A stretch of DNA of 23,437 nt from a virus. The stretch lies in IMG/VR virus record IMGVR_UViG_3300033571_007556, positions 1 to 23,437 of that record; one strand, 5' to 3'. Each line of letters opens with the position of its first letter. Position 1 is the first letter of the stretch. Of this stretch, positions 20,494-21,696 are shown one piece after another. A model generated the notes under the pieces. It worked only from the letters and a program-made list of their open reading frames with translations. It was not told the origin of the DNA and ran no database searches. A program made the position numbers and the translations under genes.

Positions 20494-21696
20494 TTATTTA
20501 TCTTTTCGTTTAGCTGTAGTAAAAGATTGAACTTTTTCTCCAGGAGTAAGTCTTTGAACATATTGTCTATAATCATCCGTTCCTATTTCTAACACTTTCG
20601 GGTGATAACTCAAATCTTTAATCCATGTTCTATGAATTTTTTTCTGCTCATCAACAAAGATTACATAATTAGAACCACGAGTAATAATTTTTCCGTCGAT
20701 TCCGGTATTGCAATCAATAACAGTTTCTCCTAGATTAAATATATTTCCTTGATAATATTCTTCACGTAAATTTTCTAAATCTAAAGAAGGAGATATTTTC
20801 CAAAGTTCTTCTTTAAGATTCATTGACTTACGAACTTGCATATAAATTGCTCTGCACTCTTTTTTGCTTGCATTTCCAGGAAGACCTTTTTTAAAAGTCT
20901 CATAATCATTTTCCAATGCAGCTTTTCTCATCATAGAACTAGTAATGCCCTCAGACTTATCTACATCTGGATCTTCCATTCCAGCACCAACTACTTCTAC
21001 ACCATAAAAATCATAAACACTTCCATTATATTTTTCTGCTATCTTTTGATATTTTTTAACATTCTCATCACCACATACAATAATTACATGCTCGTATCCT
21101 TCATCATGTAATCCTTGTAAAATATCATAAATATTATCTCCATTTTCTGGGTCGTTTATAATATTTTCTGCGTAATCTGGAAATACATGTTGTAGAATAT
21201 TATATTTGGTTTTGAAGTCTAGTGGATTTTGCTTTTTATCTGATGCACGACTTGGATATATTCTGTATTCGGCTTCTAGCTCTTCTGCCTGTTCTTGTAC
21301 AGAAGCAAGTAATTTTTCATGTCCCTGAGAAGGAGGATTAAACCTTCCGAATGTAATTACTATAGCTGGCCCTTCTCCTTCGGATGGCTGTATAGGTTCT
21401 TGAGCAGATACAGCAGAAGCAGCCCCTGCAGGCGGAGAACCTGCGGGAGCTGCGTTTACAGAGTTAGCTACATCAGCTGCGGATTGAGGACCAGAAATAG
21501 GAAGACCTTGTTTGATTTTATTTTTTTCTGATTTAGAAATTGGAACAAGTTTTTGTCCCCCCATTTCACTTTTAGCAACTATTTCACCTTTTGAATTGGA
21601 ATAATATCCTTTTCCAAGATGAACTAGACCTTTCTTTTCTGCTTCCTTTCCTGCTGGTGTTCTAGCTTCAGTTACAAATTGTCTAAAAGTTTTCAT
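20494..21696 (-). CDS. nucleotidyltransferase-domain protein with T4-like capsid-targeting leader (400 aa)
   Basis: Starts MKTFRQFVTEA, very close to the capsid-targeting leader of T4 internal proteins (MKTYQEFIAEA), which gp21 removes after the Glu. After a Pro/Ala-rich linker (70-108) comes an HxGH-type cytidylyl/adenylyltransferase fold (110-280): ITFGRFNPPSQGHEKLL with S123-Q-G-H126 in the HxGH position, VIIVCGDEN, and GITSSMMRKA with Arg257 as the ISSTxxR motif. The last 110 residues are a small beta domain (GETVIDCNTGIDGKIITRG). Such domains use NTP and release pyrophosphate, for example in NAD synthesis or nucleotide transfer. Late box CTAAATA upstream. The substrate is unknown. Confidence 0.85.
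   Translation of the reverse strand: MKTFRQFVTEARTPAGKEAEKKGLVHLGKGYYSNSKGEIVAKSEMGGQKLVPISKSEKNKIKQGLPISGPQSAADVANSVNAAPAGSPPAGAASAVSAQEPIQPSEGEGPAIVITFGRFNPPSQGHEKLLASVQEQAEELEAEYRIYPSRASDKKQNPLDFKTKYNILQHVFPDYAENIINDPENGDNIYDILQGLHDEGYEHVIIVCGDENVKKYQKIAEKYNGSVYDFYGVEVVGAGMEDPDVDKSEGITSSMMRKAALENDYETFKKGLPGNASKKECRAIYMQVRKSMNLKEELWKISPSLDLENLREEYYQGNIFNLGETVIDCNTGIDGKIITRGSNYVIFVDEQKKIHRTWIKDLSYHPKVLEIGTDDYRQYVQRLTPGEKVQSFTTAKRKDK
20495..20502 (-). promoter_or_regulatory. late box GATAAATA for the 860-aa gene
   Basis: Overlaps the last codons of the nucleotidyltransferase gene; a second AATAAATA at 20486-20493 lies closer to the ATG at 20466. Confidence 0.6.

What the first reader, a model, noticed from the sequence alone, without database searches (positions are those of the whole stretch)
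20494..21696. Nucleotidyltransferase with a T4 internal-protein leader: a possible injected effector
MKTFRQFVTEA matches the T4 capsid-targeting sequence MKTYQEFIAEA at 7 of 11 positions, and is followed by a linker and an HxGH/ISSTxxR-type transferase. T4 uses this leader to pack internal proteins that are trimmed by gp21 and injected with DNA. A packed enzyme using NTPs could modify host metabolites, RNA or proteins in the first minutes of infection, analogous to the Alt ADP-ribosyltransferase.
Basis: partly seen in the sequence, partly recalled or inferred. Interest (0 to 1): 0.8.

Follow-up and report, generated by a model that had tools for sequence, protein, structure and literature searches.

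The report
Cyanophage enzyme with T4-type packaging tag
This gene of a virus of cyanobacteria encodes a nucleotide-transferring enzyme that begins with the same short 'pack me into the head' tag that phage T4 uses for proteins it injects; relatives of the enzyme have already been found in virus particles, and the same tag sits on other cyanophage enzymes, so the tag offers a way to list what these viruses may carry into their hosts.

Summary
Window 20494-21696 (-) encodes 400 aa: leader MKTFRQFVTE|A, mini-domain, disordered linker, NMN/NaMN-adenylyltransferase-like domain, small C-terminal beta domain. It is the cyanophage-core 'cytitidyltransferase' (phrog_395; 532 phage records). The leader is 6/11 identical to T4 IPII/IPIII (reader said 7). 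Orthologues conserve F4, F7, position 8 and E10, the positions mutagenesis tied to targeting and processing in T4 IPIII, while 3, 5, 6 and 9 drift; 75 of 80 IMG/VR orthologues keep it. The same rule, run on 50 kb of T4, finds only ipII and ipIII. Published proteomics already put orthologues in virions of S-SM1, S-SZBM1, S-SCSM1 and S-CREM2; all four carry the leader. What appears new is the tag as explanation, and its spread: in S-CREM2 all five leader-bearing proteins (SAM lyase, kinase, transferase, two others) are virion proteins, and a mini-domain behind the leader is shared with kinases and large phrog_3561 proteins. Limits: one small leader-bearing family was not detected in two virions, some orthologues are leaderless, and the enrichment is modest without the transferase. 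Cleavage, injection, substrate and host target are inferred, not shown.

The parts
20494..21696 (-). Gene for the 400-aa leader-bearing nucleotidyltransferase (stop included)
   Evidence: ORF; PF01467 E 7.9e-5; phrog_395 E 3.1e-79; 532 phage records
21664..21696 (-). Residues 1-11 MKTFRQFVTEA: T4-CTS-like leader, predicted gp21 cut between Glu10 and Ala11 (between 21667 and 21666)
   Evidence: T4 alignment, conservation, pattern control; cleavage itself inferred
21526..21663 (-). Residues 12-57: mini-domain, shared with cyanophage kinases and phrog_3561 proteins
   Evidence: HMM search, reverse tblastn, AlphaFold2 pLDDT about 90
21367..21525 (-). Residues 58-110: linker, little conserved, residues 75-103 predicted disordered
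20824..21366 (-). Residues 111-291: NMN/NaMN-adenylyltransferase-like Rossmann domain
   Evidence: AlphaFold2, Foldseek NaMNAT E 1.1e-5
21319..21348 (-). Residues 117-126 GRFNPPSQGH: nucleotide-binding (H/T/S)xGH motif
   Evidence: G117, R118, N120, P121, P122, G125, H126 invariant in 18 orthologues
20926..20946 (-). Residues 251-257 ITSSMMR: second nucleotidyltransferase motif, R257 invariant
20605..20778 (-). Residues 307-364: small C-terminal helix plus beta domain (SH3/KOW-like by eye), a separate gene in P-HM2 and S-CAM3
   Evidence: also matched by phrog_22379 and phrog_4808

Best explanation
The protein is a virion-packaged enzyme. Its first ten residues act as a T4-type capsid-targeting sequence that places it in the prohead core (Phe4, Phe7). 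The prohead protease gp21 then cuts after Glu10 (VTE|A, counterpart of the [IL]LTE|x site of the major capsid protein), so the mature enzyme starts at Ala11, stays in the head in roughly one to ten copies and leaves with the DNA into the host. The catalytic domain is most likely an NMN/NaMN-type adenylyltransferase acting on the NAD pool at the start of infection. Shown: leader conservation at the T4 determinant positions, its presence on unrelated cyanophage proteins, virion presence of orthologues (published proteomics). Inferred: targeting function, cleavage, ejection, activity, substrate, benefit.
For: Invariant M1, K2, F7, E10, near-invariant F4 and A11, hydrophobic position 8 and drifting 3, 5, 6, 9 in 43 non-redundant orthologues agree with T4 IPIII mutagenesis: targeting at 4 and 7, processing at 8 and 10 (PMC9026906). 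Leader kept in 22 of 22 close and 75 of 80 further orthologues, also where the mini-domain is lost, and while the linker diverges (0.68 against 0.14 identity). Rule finds only ipII and ipIII in 50 kb of T4. Orthologues detected in virions of S-SM1, S-SCSM1, S-SZBM1, S-CREM2, all with leader. S-CREM2: 5 of 5 leader CDS in the virion against 47 of 214 others, p 6.5e-4; four phages 8 of 10, P about 5e-5. Capsid protein sites [IL]LTE|x in three cyanophages. Fold search: NaMNAT first.
Against: No N-terminal peptide data, so cleavage is unproven, and position 8 is Val, outside the strict L/I-x-E. The rule was refined after seeing the S-CREM2 list and a looser rule shows no enrichment; without the transferase itself the four-phage result is 4 of 6, P 0.017, and gp12-15 are one gene cluster. 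A 106-aa leader-bearing family was not detected in S-SZBM1 or S-SCSM1 virions. Leaderless stand-alone orthologues exist in S-CAM3, P-HM2 and a Salmonella jumbo phage. The S-PM2 virion study did not detect it (PMC3037559). Substrate models all score far below cut-off. Nothing shows ejection.
Confidence: 0.68

Rival explanations
1. Ordinary intracellular metabolic enzyme that co-purifies with particles because it is abundant; the N-terminal helix is just part of this protein's fold.
For: Low peptide counts (2 in S-SZBM1, 3 in S-CREM2); the S-CREM2 authors themselves name carry-over as possible; leaderless orthologues exist.
Against: Same leader on unrelated proteins, four of them also in S-CREM2 virions; of 29 S-CREM2 replication/metabolism ORFs only gp12, which has a leader-like segment and the mini-domain, is in the virion list; detected in four independent preparations; leader more conserved than its flank.
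Confidence: 0.15
2. The leader targets the enzyme to the prohead, but the protein acts there (assembly, scaffold or DNA packaging) and is not delivered as an effector.
For: CTS function in T4 concerns head incorporation; the gene neighbours phrog_613 head protein and an 860-aa gene whose positional counterpart S-SZBM1_139 is a virion protein.
Against: An intact nucleotidyltransferase site is conserved, not needed for a scaffold; many T4 internal proteins and Alt are ejected (PMC9026906).
Confidence: 0.12
3. The resemblance of the 11-residue leader to T4 is coincidence.
For: Only 11 residues; single BLAST matches to T-even internal proteins have E 4-10.
Against: Position-specific conservation matching T4 mutagenesis, 20 against 0 hits in the reversed-pattern control, T4 positive control.
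Confidence: 0.03

Closest known systems
T4 internal proteins IPI/IPII/IPIII and their capsid-targeting sequence (CTS)
   Same: Leader length, M-K-x-[FY]-x-x-F-[LIV]-x-E-A pattern, conserved targeting and processing positions, T4-like phage with gp21, gp22, gp23 in relatives
   Different: Cargo is a ~400-aa enzyme with an extra mini-domain, not a small basic protein; copy number apparently about 1-9 (emPAI) against ~360 per T4 IP; cleavage not shown
T4 Alt (packaged ADP-ribosyltransferase)
   Same: Idea of a low-copy enzyme packaged in the head of a T4-like phage
   Different: Different fold and chemistry (nucleotidyltransferase); Alt's propeptide is 7 residues; ejection not shown here
Cyanophage core 'cytitidyltransferase' T4-GC190 / NMNAT-like virion protein (S-SM1, S-SCSM1, S-SZBM1, S-CREM2)
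   Same: This is a member: full-length homology, leader, gene order
   Different: Window lineage has Ser in the first HxGH position; the leader's role was not mentioned in the papers read
Bacterial NaMN/NMN adenylyltransferases (NadD, NadM, NadR)
   Same: Fold and GRFNPP-x-x-GH / S-x-x-R motifs
   Different: All equivalog models far below cut-off; substrate not assignable

Membership tests
T4-type capsid-targeting-sequence (CTS) protein | N-terminal ~10-residue leader with aromatic residues at 4 and 7 | tested here: met
   F4, F7 in window; F7 43/43, F4 40/43 in orthologues
T4-type capsid-targeting-sequence (CTS) protein | gp21 site L/I-x-E at 8-10 followed by a small residue | tested here: inconclusive
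   E10 invariant, position 8 L/I/F/V; window has V-T-E|A
T4-type capsid-targeting-sequence (CTS) protein | Leader directs protein into the head | not testable with these tools
   Orthologues in virions by published MS; causal role of the leader untested
T4-type capsid-targeting-sequence (CTS) protein | Leader removed in the mature virion | not testable with these tools
   No N-terminal peptide data in the papers read
T4-type capsid-targeting-sequence (CTS) protein | Protein is ejected into the host | not testable with these tools
   No infection data
Cyanophage core T4-GC190 / phrog_395 cytidyltransferase | Full-length homology and gene order with S-SM1, S-SZBM1 | tested here: met
HxGH nucleotidyltransferase superfamily | PF01467 above cut-off, (H/T)xGH motif, Rossmann fold | tested here: met
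   23.3 bits against 21; SxGH variant; NaMNAT fold match
NMN/NaMN adenylyltransferase (NadD/NadM/NadR) | Equivalog model above curated cut-off | tested here: not met
   Best 12.9 bits against 164 for the window; orthologues also below. Works-like claim rests on fold only
Alt ADP-ribosyltransferase | ADP-ribosyltransferase fold | tested here: not met
   Pfam and the full-probability Foldseek matches are nucleotidyltransferases

The most novel reading that the evidence does not exclude
T4-like cyanophages use a portable packaging module (CTS leader, often followed by a GDGHGxW-type mini-domain) to load a variable set of enzymes (NMNAT-like transferase, SAM lyase, kinase, large phrog_3561 protein, GNAT-like acetyltransferase) into the head for delivery with the DNA, so the injected cargo of these phages can be read from genome sequence.
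Probability: 0.5. Interest if true: 0.8.

Novelty: new variant of a known kind. Interest (0 to 1): 0.62.

Why it matters
Enzymes in cyanophage virions (NMNAT-like transferase, kinases, SAM lyase) have been reported since 2010 without a packaging mechanism and with carry-over as an open worry. A conserved T4-type targeting leader on them supplies a mechanism, makes packaging testable by N-terminal peptides, and gives a sequence rule for predicting what abundant aquatic phages may deliver into cyanobacteria at the moment of infection.

Tried and rejected
A loose leader regex gave no enrichment in S-CREM2 (6 of 19 in the virion list, p 0.28): the signal needs F7 and E10. phmmer against PDB sequences found no true relative; a profile search gave only MJ0541 at E 0.1, so a fold search was used. 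Whether S-CREM2 gp12 is mis-started at LRFASFMAEA: the codon is CTG, so not resolved. The mini-domain alignment was too divergent for a contig scan; tblastn from the phrog_3561 copy was used. The 'Cas9' label of S-CREM2 gp12 is not supported by Pfam. Coincidence and simple carry-over were considered and disfavoured for the reasons under rivals.

Full report
WHAT IS THERE. The minus-strand ORF 21696-20494 encodes 400 aa beginning MKTFRQFVTEARTPAGKEAEKK. The window is a whole 23.4-kb viral record whose best phage matches are Synechococcus/Prochlorococcus T4-like phages. On the minus strand the order is: a helicase-like ORF, MazG, a 157-aa ORF, this gene, an 860-aa gene, a phrog_613 head protein, then ORFs matching cyanophage primase and ribonucleotide reductase, essentially the order of S-SZBM1 and S-SM1. 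The protein matches PF01467 and phrog_395 'cytidyltransferase' (E 3e-79); 532 phage records hold a relative. It is the cyanophage core gene T4-GC190.

THE LEADER. T4 IPII and IPIII begin MKTYQEFIAEA. An unbiased tblastn of the N-terminal 60 aa against 50,697 phage records gave cyanophage homologues and, outside them, mainly residues 1-17 of T-even proteins labelled internal protein II, internal virion/head protein or hypothetical (E 4-10, so each alone is weak).

CONSERVATION. All 22 close IMG/VR relatives keep MKTF[RKT][QK]F[VI][TI]EA. Of 80 loci from a wider search (34-51% identity, apart from two close loci found again), 75 match the leader rule; of the others L077 has it shifted, L102 is truncated, and L098, L103 and L110 lack a clean site. 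In 43 non-redundant sequences M1, K2, F7 and E10 are invariant, F4 is 40/43, position 8 is L/I/F/V, A11 39/43, while positions 3, 5, 6 and 9 have 2.0-2.8 bits of entropy. T4 IPIII mutagenesis placed targeting at residues 4 and 7 and processing at 8 and 10, and gp21 cuts after L/I-x-E (PMC9026906). In the divergent set the leader has mean column identity 0.68 and the linker 0.14. Synonymous codons vary at the invariant residues. The S-SZBM1 and S-CREM2 orthologues lack the mini-domain but keep the leader.

SPECIFICITY. The rule M-x(1,2)-[FYL]-x2-F-[LIVF]-x-E finds exactly ipII and ipIII in 50 kb of T4. In the complete S-SZBM1, S-CREM2 and S-SM1 genomes it finds 8 of 7,425 Met codons in six frames, 7 of them at annotated starts, plus the GTG start of S-CREM2 gp14. 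A DNA pattern over 13 records gave 20 hits against 0 for the reversed pattern; 18 start open frames of 54 aa or more, 8 of which are this transferase and 2 are ipII and ipIII.

VIRION EVIDENCE. Sullivan 2010 detected the citidylyltransferase T4-GC190 in S-SM1 virions (PMC3037559). It was also reported in S-SCSM1 (ORF91, PMC9602691; record note), S-SZBM1 (2 peptides, emPAI 0.26, PMC9146016) and S-CREM2 (ORF154, 3 peptides, PMC10665884). All four carry the leader. In S-CREM2 the five strict leader-bearing CDS (SAM lyase gp6, gp13, kinase gp14, gp136, transferase gp154) are all in the 52-protein virion list, against 47 of the other 214 (Fisher p 6.5e-4; size-matched product 1.6e-3). gp13 rests on a single peptide. 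Across four phages 8 of 10 leader-bearing CDS are virion proteins (P about 5e-5; gene totals of S-SM1 and S-SCSM1 are approximate, and S-SCSM1 was scanned with the narrower DNA pattern); without the transferase 4 of 6 (P 0.017). Caveats: the rule was refined after seeing the S-CREM2 list, a looser rule fails, and both misses belong to one ~106-aa family beside the terminase genes. General carry-over is unlikely: of 29 S-CREM2 DNA replication/metabolism ORFs only gp12, which has a leader-like segment and the mini-domain, is in the list.

A SHARED MODULE. An HMM of the residues after the leader finds the same mini-domain in the kinases of S-CREM2 and MA10 (two copies each) and S-CRM01 and in large proteins of phrog_3561 type (E 7e-28 to 7e-8). 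The reverse search, from a phrog_3561-type copy, returns transferase N-termini. In S-CRM01, whose kinase is cited as a virion protein (Dreher 2011 in PMC10665884), neighbouring genes 127, 129 and 130 start with the leader and gene 128 has it near its start. A GNAT-like S-CRM01 protein also starts with it. ACG-2014f carries a second protein with leader and mini-domain, a phrog_3561 member. No paper found in the open library links cyanophage virion enzymes to a capsid-targeting sequence; subscription papers were not searchable, and the T4 review does propose in general that CTSs let T4-like phages package various proteins.

THE ENZYME. AlphaFold2 (mean pLDDT 80) gives a weak leader helix (4-10), a confident mini-domain, a disordered linker (75-103), a confident Rossmann domain (111-291) and a small C-terminal beta domain. 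Foldseek against PDB puts NaMN adenylyltransferases first (E 1.1e-5, TM about 0.6 on the target), then PPAT and FAD synthetase. NadD, NadM and NadR models score far below cut-off. An NMN/NaMN adenylyltransferase is the best guess; the substrate is not settled.

MECHANISM. Most likely: targeting to the prohead core by F4/F7; gp21 cut after E10 (capsid protein sites of three cyanophages align with the T4 site as [IL]LTE|x); retention of a few copies (emPAI ratios suggest 1-9, assuming T4 copy numbers of portal and capsid protein); ejection with DNA; early action on the NAD pool. Everything after virion presence is inference.

LIMITS. Stand-alone leaderless enzymes occur in S-CAM3, in P-HM2 (where the C-terminal domain is in the next gene, which starts MKSLSDF) and in a Salmonella jumbo phage, so the leader is an add-on and not a constant of the enzyme family. 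There are no virion data for the phage of the window itself.

Noticed in passing
T4 AF158101 19101-19130 (-), locus L137: A 54-aa T4 ORF starts MKTFKEFIKEDMVAGDSGG, matching the CTS pattern; not one of the T4 internal proteins listed in the review read.
   Followed up: no
L130:1501-1818; S-SZBM1 122311-122628; S-CREM1 137282-137611; S-H38 128689: A conserved 105-109-aa family beside the terminase genes starts with the leader (MKTFKQFMSESVNISGDFNG...) but is not among the detected virion proteins of S-SZBM1 or S-SCSM1.
   Followed up: partly
HQ615693 139045 (S-CRM01), locus L136: A 131-aa GNAT-like acetyltransferase begins MKTFDEFLTEG, another possible packaged enzyme.
   Followed up: partly
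L146, L148 (record G001, 172-kb relative of the window's phage, about 22.5-23.2 kb): Two neighbouring ~200-aa proteins start MKTFAQFLEEAK and MKTYSEFLLESE; they may be further cargo in the window's own lineage.
   Followed up: no
S-CREM2 gp12, L028:7704-10313: Annotated as Cas9 nuclease and detected in virions, but Pfam finds nothing; it belongs to phrog_3561 (unknown function), as does a leader-bearing 796-aa ACG-2014f protein.
   Followed up: partly
Records metaG-MbCM1, S-MbCM6, S-H35; phrog_4808: The transferase, or its C-terminal domain, is labelled ribonucleotide reductase subunit in some records and in phrog_4808: apparently propagated misannotation.
   Followed up: no
L042:394-3204: A 937-aa protein has leader, mini-domain and transferase followed by a long C-terminal extension without a Pfam match; BFVD shows a similar 1021-aa protein in S-RIM2.
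   Followed up: no
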